Shown in pieces: positions 47,147 to 55,074 of a stretch of DNA of 64,000 nt. Within the stretch, counting starts at the first letter, position 1. Each line of letters opens with the position of its first letter. The translations under genes were made by a program, and so were the position numbers. The notes under the pieces are model-generated. The model saw nothing but the letters and a program-made list of their open reading frames with translations. It was not told where the DNA came from and did not search any database. Source of the stretch: Faecalicoccus pleomorphus DSM 20574 (GTDB lineage: Bacteria > Bacillota_I > Bacilli_A > Erysipelotrichales > Erysipelotrichaceae); contig NZ_ATUT01000001.1 of NCBI RefSeq assembly GCF_000420345.1, forward strand, positions 62,001 to 126,000. The letters are read 5' to 3'.

Positions 47147-48259
47147 TTAATTTAAACGGACTTTATCTTTATAATTTGCAGTAATATAAATATCATATTG
47201 ACTGGTAGAAAGATCTGGTTTGATTGGCGTTGTATTTTTTGAATCAATCCAGACAACGCCCACATCCGGATAGTTTTCTTGAATGAATTGTTGGCCATCC
47301 TCTAAGGACATACAAAATAGGGCTGTACTTAAGGCATCGGCTAATGTTGAATCCTTACAAAGAATGGTTACACTGCGATGAAATCTAGGTGGATAGCCAG
47401 TCTTTGGATCAATGATATGTGCATATTGTACACCATCCACTTCGTAATTTCTTTGGTAGTCGCCACTTGTCACAATCGCTAAAGGGTCAGTGGTTTTTAA
47501 TTGAAGCAAAGAGGATTGTTTATTTGGATCTTGAATGCCGATATTCCATGTTCCATTCGATTTATGACCAATTAAAACAACATTTCCTCCGGCATTGATA
47601 AAACCGGTATGTAATCCTTTATCCTCTAACTTCTCAGCGGTTTTTTGTGTTGCGTAGCCTTTGGCAATACCGCCTAAATCAATCATAAACTCAGGTTCTG
47701 TAAAACGAATCGTATTGTCTTGTATTTGTATTTTATCATTTCCTGAATGAGTTCTTGCTTCTTGAATTTCTTCTTCACTGGGAAGACGTCCGCTTTTCTG
47801 CTGTGCATTTTTTTTTAAGCCTTCTTCTCGGTATGTGTGCCAAACATCTAATAATTTTCCCTGTGTTATATCGAAGGCCGTATCTTTTTCATTGAATGCT
47901 AAAGAGTACGAAATCAGATCAACCAATTCCGGATCGACTTCTATCGGATTTTCATAAGCTTCATGATTTAAGGCATAGACATTGTTGATCCCCTCATAGG
48001 CGTTATATTGATCAAAAAGCTGATTGTAATGTATAAAACTTTCTTTTACGATCGCCACATAAGAATCAAAATCTTCTTTTGTACAGTTGGCTTCAAAAGT
48101 GATCGAGGTATCAAAGCCGACATCGGTCAATACAATGGAATGTGTATCTGGACGATTGCCAGTTTTATGTTGAATAAAGTAAACGATGCTGCAAATTAAA
48201 ATAAAAAAACAGCACGAAATAAGGATCCAGGTTTTCAATGTATTGCTCTTTTTATTCAT
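47147..48259 (-). CDS. apbE: FAD:protein FMN transferase ApbE (370 aa)
   Basis: ApbE joins FMN to a Thr of target proteins on the outer face of the membrane. A single N-terminal helix (about 11-31) anchors it. FDITQGKLLDVW, the FAD-binding IDLGGIAKGYA (about 210-220), INAGGNVVLIG and the metal-binding ASP in STLADALSTALFCM are all present. The divergent rnf operon supplies its targets, RnfD and RnfG. ATG 48259 lies seven bases after a TATAAT box with no ribosome site, so the mRNA is probably leaderless; TTG 48277 is in frame but inside the promoter. Confidence 0.93.
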   Translation of the reverse strand: MNKKSNTLKTWILISCCFFILICSIVYFIQHKTGNRPDTHSIVLTDVGFDTSITFEANCTKEDFDSYVAIVKESFIHYNQLFDQYNAYEGINNVYALNHEAYENPIEVDPELVDLISYSLAFNEKDTAFDITQGKLLDVWHTYREEGLKKNAQQKSGRLPSEEEIQEARTHSGNDKIQIQDNTIRFTEPEFMIDLGGIAKGYATQKTAEKLEDKGLHTGFINAGGNVVLIGHKSNGTWNIGIQDPNKQSSLLQLKTTDPLAIVTSGDYQRNYEVDGVQYAHIIDPKTGYPPRFHRSVTILCKDSTLADALSTALFCMSLEDGQQFIQENYPDVGVVWIDSKNTTPIKPDLSTSQYDIYITANYKDKVRLN

Positions 48260-48266
48260 AATCTGT

Positions 48267-48296
48267 ATTATAGTCAATCTCTAAATAAAAGTCTAA
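48267..48296 (-). promoter_or_regulatory. Promoter of apbE giving a leaderless mRNA
   Basis: On the minus strand TTAGAC (48296-48291), an 18-base spacer and TATAAT (48272-48267), seven bases before the ATG. Confidence 0.6.
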
Positions 48297-48697: not shown

Positions 48698-49993
48698 ATG
48701 TCACTGTTTCTGGGAGAAATGCATCATCATATTCCTGGACGTAAAGGTTTGACAGAGAAAAAAGACATCATTTCTTTGATGCCTGAAAAAGAAGTCTATA
48801 TCCCTTTGGCCGCTGGTGCCAATACAGACTTTGAAATCTTTGTCAGTGGAGGCGACAAGGTACAGATTGGTACAAAACTGGCGCAAACAAAGTCTGGTTT
48901 TTTTGTGCCTTTGTATTCCAGTGTATCTGGAACTTATATGGGAATTAAAAAGCGTATGAGTGCTATGTTGAAGCCAATGGATCATATGGTTATCGCATTG
49001 GATGAAGCGCAAACAAAGACACAGGCACTTATGCCTTTGGATTATCATACGGCAACACGAGAAGAATGCGTTGAGCAAATCAAACAGGCCGGAATTGTCG
49101 GCTTGGGTGGAGCCGGTTTTCCTACCTATGTGAAGTATCAAAAACCGGATGGAATTGATTGTATTATTATCAATGCGGTGGAATGTGAGCCTTATATTAC
49201 TGCCGATTATAAGATCATCATGAAAGATGTTTCTCATTTTTTGATGGGTTGTGAAATCTTTAAGAAGATGGCAGATGTATCGAAAGTATACATTGCGATC
49301 AAGAAAACACACCCCGATTTGATACAGGTCGTACAGGATGCGTTGCATGATAAACAGGGAATGGAAGTCTATCCGGTGCCGGATGTGTATCCTATGGGAT
49401 GGGAACGTGTTTTAGTACGTGAGATCCTGCATACAGAATATGATCGTCTTCCTTCCGAAGCTCATACGATCATCAGTAATGCGACAACTGCCATTGCGGC
49501 AGCCTATGCGTTTGAAAAAGGGGAGCCGATTACTAAAAAGATCGTAACAGTTTCCGGTGAAGGAGTTAAAAATCCTACTAACGTGGAATGTCCGGTTGGT
49601 ACACCGGTGCAGGAAGTGATCAAAGCCTGTGGTGGTTATACGACAGACAGCGTTCGTTTGATTGCCGGTGGTCCCATGATGGGAAGAACAATCGTCAACG
49701 ATCAGTTTGTCATTGATCGTGCAACCAATGCGATTACGGTTTTACCAAATGTAGCGGATGATGCGATTGCCTGCTTACGCTGTGGTCGATGCAGCGATCA
49801 TTGTCCGGCCGGCTTACAACCGGTACGTATTGCCATGGCCGTGAATGCCGGTGATGCCAAAGAAATGGAAAAAAGAGGGGCTTTACAATGTATTGAGTGC
49901 GGACTTTGCACCTATGTTTGCCCGAGTCATATCGATGTAACAGAAAATGTTCGTAAGGCAAAACGAACCGTTATGTTGAAAAAGAAGAAGTAA
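48698..49993 (+). CDS. rnfC: Rnf complex subunit RnfC (431 aa)
   Basis: RnfC is the cytoplasmic NAD-reducing subunit of the Rnf ferredoxin:NAD+ oxidoreductase that pumps Na+ or H+. The FMN/NADH-binding VGLGGAGFPTYVK motif (about residues 131-143) and VECEPYITADY are typical. Two 4Fe-4S motifs near the C terminus read CLRCGRCSDHCPAG and CIECGLCTYVCPSH. AGGAGGG precedes the ATG. It starts the rnf operon CDGEA-(small protein)-B. Confidence 0.96.
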   Translation: MSLFLGEMHHHIPGRKGLTEKKDIISLMPEKEVYIPLAAGANTDFEIFVSGGDKVQIGTKLAQTKSGFFVPLYSSVSGTYMGIKKRMSAMLKPMDHMVIALDEAQTKTQALMPLDYHTATREECVEQIKQAGIVGLGGAGFPTYVKYQKPDGIDCIIINAVECEPYITADYKIIMKDVSHFLMGCEIFKKMADVSKVYIAIKKTHPDLIQVVQDALHDKQGMEVYPVPDVYPMGWERVLVREILHTEYDRLPSEAHTIISNATTAIAAAYAFEKGEPITKKIVTVSGEGVKNPTNVECPVGTPVQEVIKACGGYTTDSVRLIAGGPMMGRTIVNDQFVIDRATNAITVLPNVADDAIACLRCGRCSDHCPAGLQPVRIAMAVNAGDAKEMEKRGALQCIECGLCTYVCPSHIDVTENVRKAKRTVMLKKKK

Positions 49994-50006: not shown

Positions 50007-51161
50007 ATGAAATTTAATTTTCACGTATCACCAAGTTTAAAAGGAAGCCTGACCACACAAAAGATCATGTTGGAGCTGACAGTGGGTTTGATGATTCTTT
50101 TCCTTTTATCTTGTTTCTATAATGGTACAACGTATGGCGCAAGCTATGTATTACATGAAGTTTTGTTGTTGGTAAGCTCTTTAGTCACAATGTTTATTTG
50201 TGAATCGATCTTTGCCAAGATTTATAAAGAGAATCCGATCGCTTATATGAAAAAGTCATTTGGTTGGGTGACAAGTATCATCCTGACATTGATGGTGCCG
50301 ATTACCATGACCGTTTATGCTTTGATCATTGCCACAATTTTTGCGATCGTATTTGGCAAATTATTGTTTGGCGGATTTGGGCAAAATATCTTTAATCCCG
50401 CTGGTGTGGGAAGAGCCGTAATTTTTGCCGCTTTTACAAGTGCGGCAGCTACAGGAATTACCACAGGAGCTACGCCAACAGCGTATTTAGCTAATACGTT
50501 TAACTGGTTGCCGGCTTCGGCGGAAGCGTTGGATTCCTTTTTATCACAATATGGCGGCTTCGCCAATTTAGCACTCGGTTTTTACGATGGCGCACTGGGA
50601 GAAACATTTACACTTGCGATTGTATTGATAGGCATCTGGTTTTGTGTGCGTAAGATCATCGATTGGCGTGTTCCGGTTGTCTATTTAGGAACAATCTTTA
50701 TTTTAACGGCAGTTGTTGCCCTGTTAAGCGGCATTGATTCCTATCATGGCATCCCAGCTTTTATCTGGTATCCATTTTTACATATGGTAACAGGTGGTAT
50801 TGTCTTTGGTGCTGTTTTCATGTTGACGGATCCGGTCACAAGTCCAACCAGCGCCCAGGGACGTGTGATCTTTGCCCTGGGAGCAGCAGTAATCACAGTT
50901 TTGTTGCGATTAAAGGCCAATCTTCCGGAAGGTTGTTTATATTCGATTCTTTTGATGAATATGTTTACGCCAATGATTGAAAGCAGCTTAGATGGTGTTC
51001 AGTTAGTTGTTAAGAAAAAAGCTTATATCATGGCAGGCTGTCTAGCCATCTTAGGACTTGCCGTATCTTTCTATGCGGCTACTTCGGTAGAACCGGTCAC
51101 AACAGCTGCCACGGAAAAAACAGCAATGATGGAAACGGTTAGAATGGAGGAAACGTTATGA
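50007..51161 (+). CDS. rnfD: Rnf complex subunit RnfD (384 aa)
   Basis: RnfD is a membrane subunit of about nine to ten helices that carries covalent FMN. The flavin Thr156 lies in GITTGATPTAY, the substrate motif of ApbE. The TDPVTSPTSAQGR segment near residue 275 is conserved in the family. RnfG overlaps its stop in ATGA. The C-terminal tail after the last helix is short and Thr/Glu rich. Confidence 0.95.
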   Translation: MKFNFHVSPSLKGSLTTQKIMLELTVGLMILFLLSCFYNGTTYGASYVLHEVLLLVSSLVTMFICESIFAKIYKENPIAYMKKSFGWVTSIILTLMVPITMTVYALIIATIFAIVFGKLLFGGFGQNIFNPAGVGRAVIFAAFTSAAATGITTGATPTAYLANTFNWLPASAEALDSFLSQYGGFANLALGFYDGALGETFTLAIVLIGIWFCVRKIIDWRVPVVYLGTIFILTAVVALLSGIDSYHGIPAFIWYPFLHMVTGGIVFGAVFMLTDPVTSPTSAQGRVIFALGAAVITVLLRLKANLPEGCLYSILLMNMFTPMIESSLDGVQLVVKKKAYIMAGCLAILGLAVSFYAATSVEPVTTAATEKTAMMETVRMEETL

Positions 51162-51670
51162 AAAAGATTCTTCATTTAACTTTGTTTTTAGCCATCGTGT
51201 CTGTCATTGCCGGTGGTGCCTTAGCTTATTTTAATGAGCTGACAGAACCTGTTATTGCCGAAAATGAGGCAAAACAGGAAAGAGAAACCTTATTGGAAAT
51301 GTATCCGGATGCCAATGTTGAAGATTTTAAAGATGTCGATCTTTCGTCCATTGAATCAAAAACGATCAATAAGATTTATTCTTATCAAGATTTCTACATC
51401 TTCAATATGAGCGTTTCCGGGTATAGTCAGGGAACAACATTCTTAGTTTCTATCGATAAAAATAATTTAAACATCGATAAATTTATCGCCATTTCCAATG
51501 GGGATACCAGTGGCTTGGGAACACAGGTTCTGGATGAACCATTTAGAAAATCATTAGAAGGAAATCCAGCCGATGGACAACTGGATACGATTTCCGGTGC
51601 TACCGTAAGTTCCGGTCCGGTCGTAGAAGGAATCCATGAGGCTGCCAGTGTAGTAGAAAGCTTAGAATAG
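51158..51670 (+). CDS. rnfG: Rnf complex subunit RnfG (170 aa)
   Basis: RnfG has one N-terminal membrane helix (about 7-26) and an outer FMN-binding domain. The flavin attachment Thr149 lies in TISGATVSSGPV, so it is an ApbE target like RnfD. It relays electrons between RnfD/E/A and RnfC. GGAGG precedes the ATG, which overlaps the rnfD stop by four bases. Confidence 0.95.
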   Translation: MKKILHLTLFLAIVSVIAGGALAYFNELTEPVIAENEAKQERETLLEMYPDANVEDFKDVDLSSIESKTINKIYSYQDFYIFNMSVSGYSQGTTFLVSIDKNNLNIDKFIAISNGDTSGLGTQVLDEPFRKSLEGNPADGQLDTISGATVSSGPVVEGIHEAASVVESLE

Positions 51671-51680
51671 GAGGAAGAAT

Positions 51681-52331
51681 ATGGATCAGTTAAAGAATTT
51701 CAAAAATGGTTTGATCAAAGACAATCCGGTTTTCTCTTTATTTCTGGGTATCTGTTCAACACTGGCCATTACGACCAGCATCAACAATGCGATCGGTATG
51801 GGGGTTTCAGTTATCATCGTATTAACAATGTCGAATGTGATCATTTCCATGATTCGAAAGATCACACCGGATGAGATTCGTATTCCGGTTTACATCGTGA
51901 TCATTGCGACGTTAGTAACGATCATACAAATGTTGATTCAGGCATTTGCACCGGCTTTAAATGAAAGCTTGGGCGTATTTATTCCTTTGATCGTTGTCAA
52001 CTGTATCATCTTAGGTCGTGCGGAAAGCTTTGCCAGCAAGAATGGCATTGTGGCCAGTGCAATCGATGGAATTGGTATGGGATTAGGATATACATTAGCT
52101 GTACTTTCTATGTCCCTTATTCGTGAGGTGCTCTCTACTGGTGGAATTTTGATTACCAATCCGTTTAATACGGCGCAGGTGTTATTGAATGTCACGCTGT
52201 TTCCGGAAGATTTTACCATTTCATTATTTGGTTCTCCGGTAGGTGCCTTTATTACATTTGCTTGTCTGGCTTCAGCTTTAGGTGCTTATAAAATGCATTT
52301 GGAAGCCAAAGAAAAGGCAAAGGAGAAATAG
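51681..52331 (+). CDS. rnfE: Rnf complex subunit RnfE (216 aa)
   Basis: RnfE is an integral membrane subunit of six helices, related to RnfA in a head-to-tail pair that holds a membrane Fe-S cluster. NPVFSLFLGICSTLAITTS and VNCIILGRAESFASKNG (about residues 110-126) are family motifs, including the Cys of each half (Cys25 and Cys112) that bind the cluster. GGAGG precedes the ATG. Confidence 0.95.
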   Translation: MDQLKNFKNGLIKDNPVFSLFLGICSTLAITTSINNAIGMGVSVIIVLTMSNVIISMIRKITPDEIRIPVYIVIIATLVTIIQMLIQAFAPALNESLGVFIPLIVVNCIILGRAESFASKNGIVASAIDGIGMGLGYTLAVLSMSLIREVLSTGGILITNPFNTAQVLLNVTLFPEDFTISLFGSPVGAFITFACLASALGAYKMHLEAKEKAKEK

Positions 52332-52334
52332 AAT

Positions 52335-52910
52335 ATGAGTGAATTAGTAACTTTATTGGTAACCAGTGTATTGATCAATAACGTCATTTTAAACCAGTTC
52401 TTAGGTATGTGTCCTTTTATGGGCGTATCGAAGAAAAAGTCCAGTGCACTAGGAATGGGTGTTGCCGTTGTCTTTGTTATTGTGGTAGCGGCTCTGGTTA
52501 CTTACGCTTTATATTATTTGGTTTTGGTTCCGATCGGTTTGGAATTTATGGAACTGATTACCTTTATCCTGGTCATCGCATCGTTGGTACAGTTAACGGA
52601 GATGTTCATCAAAAAGTACAGTCCCAGCTTATATAAGTCGTTAGGTGTCTATCTGCCATTGATTACGACCAACTGTGTTGTATTAAACGTATGTTTAGTC
52701 AATATTACCAATGCTTATGATTTTTCACATATGCTGGTATATTCTGTTGGTACGCCGCTTGGTTTTGCGCTTGTGTTGTATATCTTTTCAACCATTCGTG
52801 AACGCTTGGAACTGAGCAATGTACCGGCTGCCTTTAAAGGAAATGGAATTGCCCTGATTTGTGCAGCCATCATGTCTATGGCATTTTCCGGACTTGCAGG
52901 TATCGTATAA
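52335..52910 (+). CDS. rnfA: Rnf complex subunit RnfA (191 aa)
   Basis: RnfA is the six-helix partner of RnfE. NNVILNQFLGMCPFMGVSKK (about residues 16-35) and TTNCVVLNVCLVN (about 108-120) carry the conserved Cys residues that help bind the membrane Fe-S cluster. AAAGGAG precedes the ATG. Its stop shares a base with the start of the small Cys-rich protein gene (TAATG). Confidence 0.95.
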   Translation: MSELVTLLVTSVLINNVILNQFLGMCPFMGVSKKKSSALGMGVAVVFVIVVAALVTYALYYLVLVPIGLEFMELITFILVIASLVQLTEMFIKKYSPSLYKSLGVYLPLITTNCVVLNVCLVNITNAYDFSHMLVYSVGTPLGFALVLYIFSTIRERLELSNVPAAFKGNGIALICAAIMSMAFSGLAGIV

Positions 52911-53098
52911 TGAAATACCTTTTAGCAGCATTGTTTTTTGGAGCGCTGGTACTGGTGTATATCGTTTTGTATCTATTAAACAAAAAAACACCGTTACCGG
53001 AAGGATGTGAAGATCTGAAAGCCGATTGTGAAGGCTGTCATGATTTTTCCTGCTCACACAATCCTGCTCATCATATAAAGAAAGCAGAAGGAGAATAG
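52910..53098 (+). CDS. Small Cys-rich membrane protein inserted between rnfA and rnfB (62 aa)
   Basis: The family is unknown to me. One membrane helix (residues 3-23) is followed by a short tail with Cys33, Cys40, Cys43 and Cys48 (pattern Cx6Cx2Cx4C) and His44, His50, His54 and His55. Four Cys in 16 residues suggest a metal or Fe-S site at the membrane face, somewhat like the Cys-rich proteins found beside FeoB. The ATG overlaps the rnfA stop (TAATG), and rnfB starts three bases after its stop, so it is made with the complex. Its side of the membrane is unclear; the N-in rule would place the tail outside. Confidence 0.75.
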   Translation: MKYLLAALFFGALVLVYIVLYLLNKKTPLPEGCEDLKADCEGCHDFSCSHNPAHHIKKAEGE

Positions 53099-53101
53099 GA
53101 T

Positions 53102-53419
53102 ATGTTGGATACGATTTTGATTGCGGTGGTCATGATGCTTGTGCTGGGAGCTCTTTTGGGCCTTGGTTTAGGCTTTGCCGATCGGTTTCTAAAAGTGGAA
53201 GCGGATGAACGAGTAGAAAAAGTGACAAGCATGCTTCCTGGTTATAACTGTGGGGGATGTGGTTATCCGGGTTGTTCCGGTATGGCTGAAGCCATGGTCA
53301 CAAAAGAGGTGAATACATTCTTGTGTAAGCCTTGTAAACCGGATAAAAAACAGGAAATCATCGATTACTTAAAAAATACACCGGGTCCGGATGGATCAAC
53401 GGTGGAAATCAAAGGATAA
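53102..53419 (+). CDS. rnfB: Truncated RnfB: membrane helix and one 4Fe-4S domain only (105 aa)
   Basis: RnfB normally takes electrons from ferredoxin through a membrane helix, a 4Fe-4S domain and two to several ferredoxin-like clusters. Here the helix (about 4-24) and the first domain (LPGYNCGGCGYPGCSGMAEA with Cys50, Cys53, Cys58 and Cys75) are present, and then the protein ends after a short DGSTVEIKG tail. The two or more CxxCxxCxxxCP motifs that follow in standard RnfB are absent, and a terminator follows directly. No frameshifted remainder is visible downstream, so it looks like a stable short form. Cys78 is an extra. Confidence 0.9.
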   Translation: MLDTILIAVVMMLVLGALLGLGLGFADRFLKVEADERVEKVTSMLPGYNCGGCGYPGCSGMAEAMVTKEVNTFLCKPCKPDKKQEIIDYLKNTPGPDGSTVEIKG

Positions 53420-53452
53420 AAAAAATCTGGTCAAATTGATCAGATTTTTTTG
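53418..53452. terminator. Terminator shared by the rnf operon and the convergent rqcH gene
   Basis: AAATCTG pairs with CAGATTT with A's and T's on both sides. The rqcH stop (53440-53442) lies in it. Confidence 0.85.
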
Positions 53453-55074
53453 TATTCCTGTATCCATTGTTCCACCGGTGCCTCCTGGGGATCAATATAG
53501 ATGGTTTTATAGGTTTTCATGGTCACAAAACCGGTTTTGGCTCCGGGAACTTTTTTTAAATTCGAAATTGTGGTGTAATTGACCGGCACACTGCTGGAAT
53601 CTTTACTTTTGGAATAATAGGCGGCCAGATTGGCACACATACGGATTTGTTCTTCATCCACATGTTCGCTTTTCAATAAAACATGAGATCCGTGATAATC
53701 TTTAACATGAAACCACAAGTCATTTTTACGTGCAATTTGATGTGTAATGTAATGGTTCTGCAGATTATTTTTACCGACAAAGATCGTAAAATCATCTTTT
53801 TGAAGACATAGTAAATTCGGCTTGTTTTTGTGTTTGGTATTCTTCTGATTCTTTTTTACAAACAAGATGCGATTTTTGACTAGTTCCTCGCGAATCTCTA
53901 AAGCATCAGGGATAGAACAATGAGCCAGCTGTTCTTCTAACTGCGTAAAATAAGCAATATCTTCCTTACATGCTTCGATCTGTTCTTTTAATATGGTCAG
54001 TGATCGTTTTAATTTGTGATATTTCTGATAATACTTATTGGCGTTTTGTTTGAGATCATAGCGCATATCAATGGGAATCTGTACCCATTCATCTCGTTCG
54101 AAGGAAGGAACTTCAATGACTGGCTCTTTTGGTACTTCATCCATATAGGCAAATAAAAGATCACCGTATTCCTGATATTTTTGATAGTCCTGTGAAAGTG
54201 CTAACGTGCTTTGCAGCTTGGGAAGCTTTTTGATGGCTTTATTCTTTTCTTTTTCCACACATCGAAAGACATCTCCACATTGTTCCTTGATACGAGCTTT
54301 TTGTTCTTCTTCCTGGTACAGATGATGAAAGCCTTCCATAAACGAAAAAATCTTTGGTTTTTGATCAATGTGTAGCATCGGTAAGGCATGAAAGTCTTTT
54401 TCATAAACATAGAGTGATGTGGACTGTAATAACTCTTGCAGGATGTCTTCATAAGCTTGTCCACTGTTTAAACGATAGAGAAATTCTCTTGACAATAAGG
54501 GAGAAAAGCCATAGATCTGTTTGACTAAACTGGTATCCTTATCAATGTGTGTTACATGGAGCGGATCTTGTTTATGACCAGGATCCGGTAACGTATATTT
54601 AGCCCCCGGATGAATCAGTCGTTTAGAATTTTCGTAAACGGGTATGCGTTTTAAAGCATCGATGATGAACCCTTGTTGATCAACAAAAACAAGATTGGAG
54701 TATTTTCCCATCAATTCTACATAGAGTTTATATTTTTTTATATCTCCCAGTTCATCGCGCGCTACAATCGACATCTCTAAAATCCGGTCAAATCCAATTT
54801 GTTTTATATCTTCAAGGATAGCCTGATTACACTTTTTGCGTAAGACCATCACAAAGTTGCTGGGAGTCATCTGCGAAGGATAGGAATAATCATTTAAGTA
54901 AATACGATTGGTATTGGAATGTACATTGATGACAAGCTTTTCGGTCTTGGTATGTGTACGAAGAACAAATAAAAGCTCTTCATCGCTTATATTTTGGATT
55001 TTATTTAACTTACAAGGGCAAAGTGCCTGTAAGTGTTTGTTGATTACATGCAACAATAAACCATCTAATGCCAT
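53440..55074 (-). CDS. rqcH: Ribosome quality control protein RqcH, NFACT family (544 aa)
   Basis: RqcH binds stalled 50S subunits with peptidyl-tRNA and adds Ala tails that mark the peptide for degradation. The NFACT-N domain (about 1-190) holds the Asp-Arg pair in GFDRILEM. Long helices form the coiled coil (about 270-410). The NFACT-R domain (about 440-540; NDLWFHVKDYHGSHVLLK) lies at the end. Older annotations call it fibronectin-binding protein. AAAGGAGG precedes the ATG. It is divergent from gmk. ylmH in this window encodes a likely partner. Confidence 0.95.
   Translation of the reverse strand: MALDGLLLHVINKHLQALCPCKLNKIQNISDEELLFVLRTHTKTEKLVINVHSNTNRIYLNDYSYPSQMTPSNFVMVLRKKCNQAILEDIKQIGFDRILEMSIVARDELGDIKKYKLYVELMGKYSNLVFVDQQGFIIDALKRIPVYENSKRLIHPGAKYTLPDPGHKQDPLHVTHIDKDTSLVKQIYGFSPLLSREFLYRLNSGQAYEDILQELLQSTSLYVYEKDFHALPMLHIDQKPKIFSFMEGFHHLYQEEEQKARIKEQCGDVFRCVEKEKNKAIKKLPKLQSTLALSQDYQKYQEYGDLLFAYMDEVPKEPVIEVPSFERDEWVQIPIDMRYDLKQNANKYYQKYHKLKRSLTILKEQIEACKEDIAYFTQLEEQLAHCSIPDALEIREELVKNRILFVKKNQKNTKHKNKPNLLCLQKDDFTIFVGKNNLQNHYITHQIARKNDLWFHVKDYHGSHVLLKSEHVDEEQIRMCANLAAYYSKSKDSSSVPVNYTTISNLKKVPGAKTGFVTMKTYKTIYIDPQEAPVEQWIQEYKKI

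What the first reader, a model, noticed from the sequence alone, without database searches (positions are those of the whole stretch)
52910..53419. Rnf complex with a stripped-down RnfB and a new Cys-rich membrane mini-protein
All six rnf genes are present, but RnfB is only 105 residues. It keeps its membrane helix and first 4Fe-4S domain and lacks the ferredoxin-like clusters that normally take electrons from ferredoxin. Just before it, overlapping rnfA by one base and three bases from rnfB, is a 62-residue membrane protein with four Cys in 16 residues and several His. The small protein may replace or reshape the electron-input end, or another soluble carrier may dock directly on the short RnfB.
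Basis: partly seen in the sequence, partly recalled or inferred. Interest (0 to 1): 0.78.

Follow-up and report, generated by a model that had tools for sequence, protein, structure and literature searches.

The report
One-cluster RnfB with Cys-rich mini-protein
The Rnf respiratory pump in this gut bacterium, and in most Rnf-carrying members of its bacterial class, has an electron-entry subunit cut down to a single iron-sulfur domain and is nearly always accompanied by a tiny, apparently undescribed cysteine-rich membrane protein that most likely helps build the pump's buried iron-sulfur cluster.

Summary
rnfCDGEA is followed by a 62-residue one-helix protein with four Cys (52910-53098) and a 105-residue RnfB (53102-53419) that has only the membrane helix and one PF04060 [4Fe-4S] domain. 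The genome has no second RnfB. Both genes are under purifying selection and occur throughout the window's class: in a 296-genome sample, 154 genomes carry this RnfB type and 149 of them have a recognisable mini-protein; six full-length (Clostridia-type) rnfB operons in the same class lack it. The short-RnfB operons form one clade. In several families the mini gene has left the operon but is kept in Rnf-positive genomes; some copies shrink to 35 residues or three Cys; some genomes carry another copy in copper-export loci. Soluble ferredoxin most likely reduces the single RnfB cluster directly, and the mini-protein is most likely a dedicated, NqrM-like accessory for the RnfA/RnfE [2Fe-2S] cluster. 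It is not a demonstrable NqrM homologue (profile score below shuffled controls). A redox-subunit role is not excluded. One-cluster RnfB is not unique: Fusobacterium RnfB also has only PF04060. Verdict: new variant of a known complex, with an undescribed small-protein family.

The parts
48698..49993 (+). rnfC (431 aa; NADH side, two 4Fe-4S motifs)
   Evidence: TIGR01945 1e-105; Complex1_51K, SLBB, RnfC_N, Fer4
50007..51161 (+). rnfD (384 aa)
   Evidence: PF03116 9.7e-70
51158..51670 (+). rnfG (170 aa; FMN-binding domain with SGAT motif)
   Evidence: PF04205 3.6e-10; SGATVSS seen in the sequence
51681..52331 (+). rnfE (216 aa; both [2Fe-2S] ligand Cys motifs kept; no Cys-rich tail)
   Evidence: PF02508 1.3e-62, TIGR01948; LGIC and VNCI motifs
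52335..52910 (+). rnfA (191 aa; both [2Fe-2S] ligand Cys motifs kept)
   Evidence: TIGR01943 3.1e-72; LGMC and TNCV motifs
52910..53098 (+). Cys-rich one-helix mini-protein (62 aa), motif N-x2-T-P-x-P-x-G-C-E-x5-C-x2-C-x4-C
   Evidence: no family above its cut-off
53102..53419 (+). short rnfB (105 aa): membrane helix plus one PF04060 [4Fe-4S] domain, no ferredoxin-like domain
   Evidence: PF04060 2.2e-12; TIGR01944 positions 3-92/190; AlphaFold model pLDDT 91
53420..53454 (.). probable intrinsic terminator after rnfB, shared with the convergent gene at 53440-55074 (read by eye: aatctggtcaaattgatcagatttttttg)
   Evidence: sequence
47147..48277 (-). ApbE-like flavin transferase gene, divergent from rnfC; probable flavinylation factor for RnfG/RnfD
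   Evidence: ORF, recognised by eye; a similar ApbE-like neighbour is found on 58 of 80 relative loci

Best explanation
This is a complete Rnf (ferredoxin:NAD+ oxidoreductase, ion-pumping) operon of a distinct lineage type in the window's class (Bacilli by inference). Its RnfB has lost the C-terminal ferredoxin-like domain and consists of the membrane anchor and the tethered single-[4Fe-4S] domain that normally hands electrons to the RnfA/RnfE [2Fe-2S] cluster. Soluble 2[4Fe-4S] ferredoxin most likely docks on and reduces this domain directly; the rest of the path (RnfA/E, RnfG, RnfD, RnfC, NAD+) is unchanged. The mini-protein is a dedicated accessory of this Rnf type: one membrane helix with a Cys-rich tail on the cytoplasmic side. 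It most likely binds and delivers iron, or helps place the intramembrane [2Fe-2S] cluster in RnfA/RnfE, doing for this Rnf what NqrM does for Na+-NQR without demonstrable homology. Shown: architecture, conservation, single copy, co-occurrence, purifying selection. Inferred: topology (positive-inside rule), direct ferredoxin docking, maturation role.
For: RnfB: 80 of 80 named relatives are 88-120 aa with one PF04060 Cys set; no second rnfB; fold match to the corrinoid/Fe-S protein [4Fe-4S] domain, probability 1.0, rmsd 1.2 over 50 columns, though E 0.047; two PFOR-like proteins and a 57-aa ferredoxin in the genome; one-cluster RnfB also in Fusobacterium, where the Rnf is functional in vivo (PMC10790702); RnfA/E cluster ligands kept. 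Mini-protein: class cross-tab 136 both, 23 rnfB only, 3 mini only, 134 neither, with most of the 23 resolved on closer search to 149 of 154 for this RnfB type; kept in Rnf-positive genomes even where unlinked; C-side positive charge in 74 of 78; N, T, P, G and four Cys invariant in 51 sequences, the last three Cys kept in diverged lineages; accessory genes nqrM and apbE likewise move around relative to nqr operons. NqrM role: PMC12174285, PMC6209661.
Against: No homology of the mini-protein to NqrM can be shown: hhalign probability 20%, score 21.5 against 26.8 +/- 3.3 for controls with shuffled NqrM tails, and no PF04400 hit in 51 members. The solved clostridial and acetogen Rnf operons are not known to have such a protein. 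Its strict association with the short-RnfB clade, and absence from long-RnfB operons in the same class, would also fit a role tied to the short RnfB. Three genomes have a mini-protein but no detected Rnf. There is no direct evidence that any mini-protein binds iron.
Confidence: 0.5

Rival explanations
1. The mini-protein is a true seventh subunit at the input end: its Cys tail holds an Fe-S or Fe centre, or a ferredoxin docking site, that relays electrons from ferredoxin to the short RnfB or to RnfA/E, compensating for the lost RnfB domain.
For: Gene lies between rnfA and rnfB and overlaps rnfB in many relatives; 149 of 154 short-RnfB-type genomes have it, while 0 of 6 long-RnfB operons do; four near-invariant Cys; tail on the same membrane side as the RnfB cluster.
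Against: Only three Cys in many lineages; 35-37-residue forms; gene moves out of the operon while rnfCDGEAB stays together; also present with a two-domain RnfB; copies in copper loci and three orphans without Rnf; long-RnfB operons are a separate lineage, so the exclusion may be ancestry only.
Confidence: 0.22
2. The mini-protein is a general metal-handling membrane peptide (copper or iron chelation, protection or repair of exposed Fe-S clusters) that is recruited to Rnf but not specific to it.
For: Extra copies sit beside copper-transport-type P-type ATPases, CopZ-like domains and CsoR-like regulators (L244, L249, L278); weak sub-threshold similarity to FeoB_associated in 21 of 51 members, best E 0.0013; orphans in three genomes.
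Against: Only 3 of 137 rnfB-negative genomes carry one; the common copy is the rnf-linked or Rnf-associated one.
Confidence: 0.15
3. The mini-protein is a structural or assembly scaffold (holding short RnfB near RnfA/E) with a zinc or disulfide-stabilised tail, with no redox or cluster-delivery role.
For: Single helix plus loop in the AlphaFold model; tight gene coupling to rnfB.
Against: Conserved tail is mostly Cys, Gly and Pro around a CxxCx4C core; gene dispersal.
Confidence: 0.1
4. RnfB is a degraded gene or assembly artefact and this Rnf is non-functional.
For: Unusually short compared with solved RnfB chains of 174-333 aa.
Against: Same length in all relatives with a shared C-terminus; dN/dS well below 1; complete operon and conserved ligands.
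Confidence: 0.02

Closest known systems
Rnf complex (RnfABCDGE; Clostridium tetanomorphum 7zc6, Acetobacterium woodii 9eri, 8ahx)
   Same: All six genes in the order CDGEAB; RnfA/E [2Fe-2S] ligands, RnfG FMN motif, RnfC clusters present.
   Different: RnfB is 105 aa against 174-333 aa and lacks the C-terminal cluster domain; an extra small gene lies between rnfA and rnfB.
NqrM (PF04400/DUF539), maturation factor of Na+-NQR
   Same: Small one-helix membrane protein with a Cys tail, encoded with the homologous pump; proposed to supply iron to the NqrD/NqrE cluster (PMC6209661, PMC12174285).
   Different: No PF04400 hit; profile comparison not above shuffled controls; different Cys spacing (C-x6-C-x2-C-x4-C in the window protein; the enterobacterial NqrM has GSCGG...CDCPEPC).
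Fusobacterium RnfB (L265)
   Same: Only the N-terminal PF04060 domain, no Fer4 domains.
   Different: Carries a long C-terminal region of about 350 residues with repeats; no mini-protein between rnfA and rnfB.
Cys-rich C-terminal tail of RnfE in Clostridia-type operons (Subdoligranulum L261; L221, L217, L250)
   Same: A Cys-rich stretch such as CxxCx5Cx3-4C after a membrane helix, within the same pump.
   Different: Fused to RnfE, found with full-length RnfB, belongs to another clade; homology not tested.
FeoB-associated Cys-rich membrane protein (PF12669)
   Same: Short one-helix protein with Cys tail; sub-threshold match in 21 of 51 members.
   Different: Score well below the gathering cut-off (14.6 of 27 bits for the window protein); context is Rnf, not FeoB.

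Membership tests
Rnf complex | All of rnfC, D, G, E, A, B in one operon with family matches | tested here: met
Rnf complex | Four Cys ligands of the RnfA/RnfE [2Fe-2S] cluster | tested here: met
   LG.C and NC motifs in window RnfE and RnfA and in relatives: 77/77 RnfE; 65 and 76 of 77 RnfA by pattern
Rnf complex | Ferredoxin:NAD+ oxidoreductase and ion-pumping activity | not testable with these tools
   needs biochemistry
Canonical RnfB (TIGR01944) | Membrane helix plus PF04060 [4Fe-4S] domain | tested here: met
Canonical RnfB (TIGR01944) | C-terminal ferredoxin-like (Fer4) domain with two or more [4Fe-4S] clusters | tested here: not met
   no Fer4 match; profile stops at position 92/190, 66.2 bits against cut-off 68.7
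NqrM (PF04400) | Profile match to PF04400 or its alignment | tested here: not met
   no hit in 51 members; hhalign 20% probability, below shuffled controls
NqrM (PF04400) | One membrane helix followed by a four-Cys tail, encoded with the pump | tested here: met
   mini-protein; NqrM; resemblance of architecture only
NqrM (PF04400) | Required for the intramembrane [2Fe-2S] cluster | not testable with these tools
   needs a deletion and EPR or iron assay
FeoB_associated (PF12669) | Score above the gathering cut-off | tested here: not met
   14.6 bits against 27; best E 0.0013 among members

The most novel reading that the evidence does not exclude
The mini-protein is a genuine seventh Rnf subunit whose Cys tail carries a metal or Fe-S centre and forms, with the one-cluster RnfB, a new minimal electron-input module that replaces the ferredoxin-like domain across a whole bacterial class.
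Probability: 0.2. Interest if true: 0.82.

Novelty: new variant of a known kind. Interest (0 to 1): 0.6.

Why it matters
How the membrane-buried [2Fe-2S] cluster of Rnf is built is unclear; a small protein strictly associated with one Rnf lineage makes that directly testable, as NqrM did for NQR. A naturally one-cluster RnfB shows the least that an Rnf input module needs, useful for separating docking and wiring roles of the extra clusters. The lineage includes common gut genera (Holdemanella, Holdemania, Allobaculum, Faecalicoccus), so their energy-conservation machinery carries an unrecognised part.

Tried and rejected
Second full-length rnfB elsewhere: rejected. Assembly error or decayed gene: rejected. 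Mini-protein as an NqrM homologue: tested by Pfam scan and profile comparison with shuffled controls, not supported; no NqrM in the genome either (best E 0.32). First-pass impression that several short-RnfB genomes lack the mini-protein: mostly wrong once diverged, unlinked or 35-residue forms were sought (in one search the L126 genome was matched by a sequence identical to a query row, so its E-value is inflated, but the gene is there). Mini-protein replaced by an RnfE Cys tail: the operons with tails are a separate Clostridia-like lineage, so this is at most convergence. PDB search with the mini profile and fold search with its model: no match. Viral contig scan for RnfE: nothing. Literature search in the held library for RnfB with Erysipelotrichia and for small Rnf proteins: nothing relevant. 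The phylum-level survey returned hits only in the same class, so Clostridia were reached only through plasmid-collection records. One tool call with a wrong frame was corrected.

Full report
What is there. Between 48698 and 53419 the window carries rnfC, D, G, E, A, a 62-residue ORF and rnfB on the plus strand. The ORF overlaps the rnfA stop by one base and ends three bases before rnfB. A gene that I recognise by eye as ApbE-like lies divergently upstream of rnfC (47147-48277). The closest relatives by contig match are Faecalicoccus (Erysipelotrichaceae), so the window is most likely from that genus (inference).

Short RnfB. RnfB has one transmembrane helix and one PF04060 domain; the TIGR01944 profile stops at position 92 of 190. 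Solved RnfB chains are 174, 274 and 333 aa, and the short family aligns only to their first 75-100 residues. According to PMC12174285 the C-terminal domain, with two to seven clusters, accepts electrons from ferredoxin, and the small tethered one-cluster domain passes them to RnfA/E. The short RnfB therefore keeps the passing domain and lacks the accepting one. The genome has a single PF04060 site. All 80 named relatives have RnfB of 88-120 aa with exactly this cluster pattern and no CxxCxxCxxxC.

Mini-protein. It forms a clear family: in 51 aligned members N24, T27, P30, G32 and Cys 33, 40, 43, 48 are invariant. 77 of 78 members on named loci match N..T..P.GC.{5,7}C..C.{4}C. No Pfam or NCBIfam family reaches its cut-off for the window protein, the Pfam scan of all members shows only weak matches, and nothing in the PDB matches. 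The model is a helix 2-25 followed by a loop. K/R residues lie on the C-terminal side of the helix in 74 of 78, which puts the Cys tail in the cytoplasm. Both the mini gene and rnfB are under purifying selection (dN well below dS in all pairs).

How general. In 146 genomes of the family the mini-protein is found in 110. In 296 genomes of the class, 159 have RnfB and 139 the mini-protein: both 136, RnfB only 23, mini only 3, neither 134 (Fisher 4e-55, not corrected for relatedness). Seventeen genomes tested without RnfB lack RnfA/E as well. Of the 23 RnfB-only genomes, five have long Clostridia-type RnfB. Of the other 18, G230, G410 and G364 have three-Cys minis between rnfA and rnfB (by eye); G184 and G300 have unlinked minis; G307, G382, G208 and G406 have unlinked minis; and the four f12 genomes have 35- to 40-residue forms such as MIGFVIVLLLFILTFILYRVNKTKEKCKGCDLCQL between rnfA and rnfB (by eye). 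That gives 149 of 154. The rest are G182 (55% complete), G361 (contig ends there), G352 and G375 (82-84% complete) and G388.

Linkage and history. In families f22 and f17, and in G160, G202, G269 and G279, the mini gene sits at unrelated sites (for example between phosphoglucomutase-like and uracil-DNA-glycosylase-like genes, or next to a dCMP-deaminase-like gene), while the sampled rnf operons stay whole. Lineages with unlinked minis often keep only the last three Cys. In family f9 RnfB is 184-192 aa because PF04060 is duplicated, not because a ferredoxin domain is present, and the mini-protein is kept. A RnfE+RnfA tree puts all short-type operons sampled in one clade (support 95) beside Bacteroides plus Fusobacterium; the long-RnfB operons group with Subdoligranulum. 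So the short RnfB and the mini-protein are both old features of this Rnf lineage, and their exclusion from long-RnfB operons may be ancestry rather than function.

Mechanism. For RnfB: the PF04060 domain has the fold of the [4Fe-4S] domain of the corrinoid/Fe-S protein, which by established knowledge is reduced by soluble partner proteins. The genome encodes two PFOR-like proteins, an [FeFe]-hydrogenase-like protein and a 57-aa 2[4Fe-4S] ferredoxin (identified by reading the sequences). Fusobacterium RnfB likewise has only PF04060, and F. nucleatum Rnf deletions have strong metabolic phenotypes (PMC10790702). Direct reduction by ferredoxin is therefore the simplest reading. For the mini-protein: dispersal of its gene while the structural genes stay together, tolerance for losing a Cys, shrinkage to about 35 residues, copies in copper-export loci, and the parallel with nqrM and apbE, which also move around relative to nqr operons, all point to an accessory that handles metal for the RnfA/E cluster. 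I put this at about 0.5, with a redox subunit at about 0.2 and a general metal-handling role at 0.15.

Not a member of NqrM. Against an eight-sequence NqrM alignment hhalign gives 20% probability with a score below shuffled-tail controls. It may work like NqrM; it cannot be filed as NqrM.

Limits. Co-occurrence was not phylogenetically corrected. Clostridia were sampled only through a few plasmid-collection records. Several diverged minis were recognised by position and architecture, not by score. No multimer prediction was possible. No paper describing either feature was found in the held open-access library, which does not cover most subscription journals.

Noticed in passing
L244 7648-7848; L249 7708-7851; L278 7769-7960: Extra mini-protein copies lie beside copper-type P-type ATPases, CopZ-like and CsoR-like genes, away from the rnf operon or downstream of it.
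   Followed up: partly
L244 8625-9188, L245 8004-8558, L246 7452-8030: RnfB of 184-192 aa made by tandem duplication of the PF04060 domain, with no ferredoxin-like domain.
   Followed up: partly
L265 7223-8512 (Fusobacterium vincentii): RnfB of 429 aa with a single PF04060 domain and long repeats, no Fer4 clusters; general statements about RnfB domain structure do not fit it.
   Followed up: partly
L221 175-888, L217 185-898, L250 8258-8932, L261 5992-6690: RnfE with a Cys-rich C-terminal tail in Clostridia-type operons with full-length RnfB.
   Followed up: partly
L218 1388-1498, L219 1385-1498, L220 1400-1507 (coordinates on the reverse complement): 35-37-residue micro-forms of the mini-protein between rnfA and rnfB in genomes of about 0.8-0.9 Mb.
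   Followed up: partly
L274 7151-7387 (G321); also G339, G386: Mini-protein present in genomes without any detected Rnf-Nqr subunit; two of the three genomes are incomplete.
   Followed up: partly
L089 7813-7989: In an Ileibacterium MAG the otherwise conserved first Cys of the mini-protein reads Met.
   Followed up: no
L297 8469-8636, L300 9461-9640: Short NqrM-like proteins next to alphaproteobacterial NQR operons; one is just below the PF04400 cut-off and one has no match.
   Followed up: no
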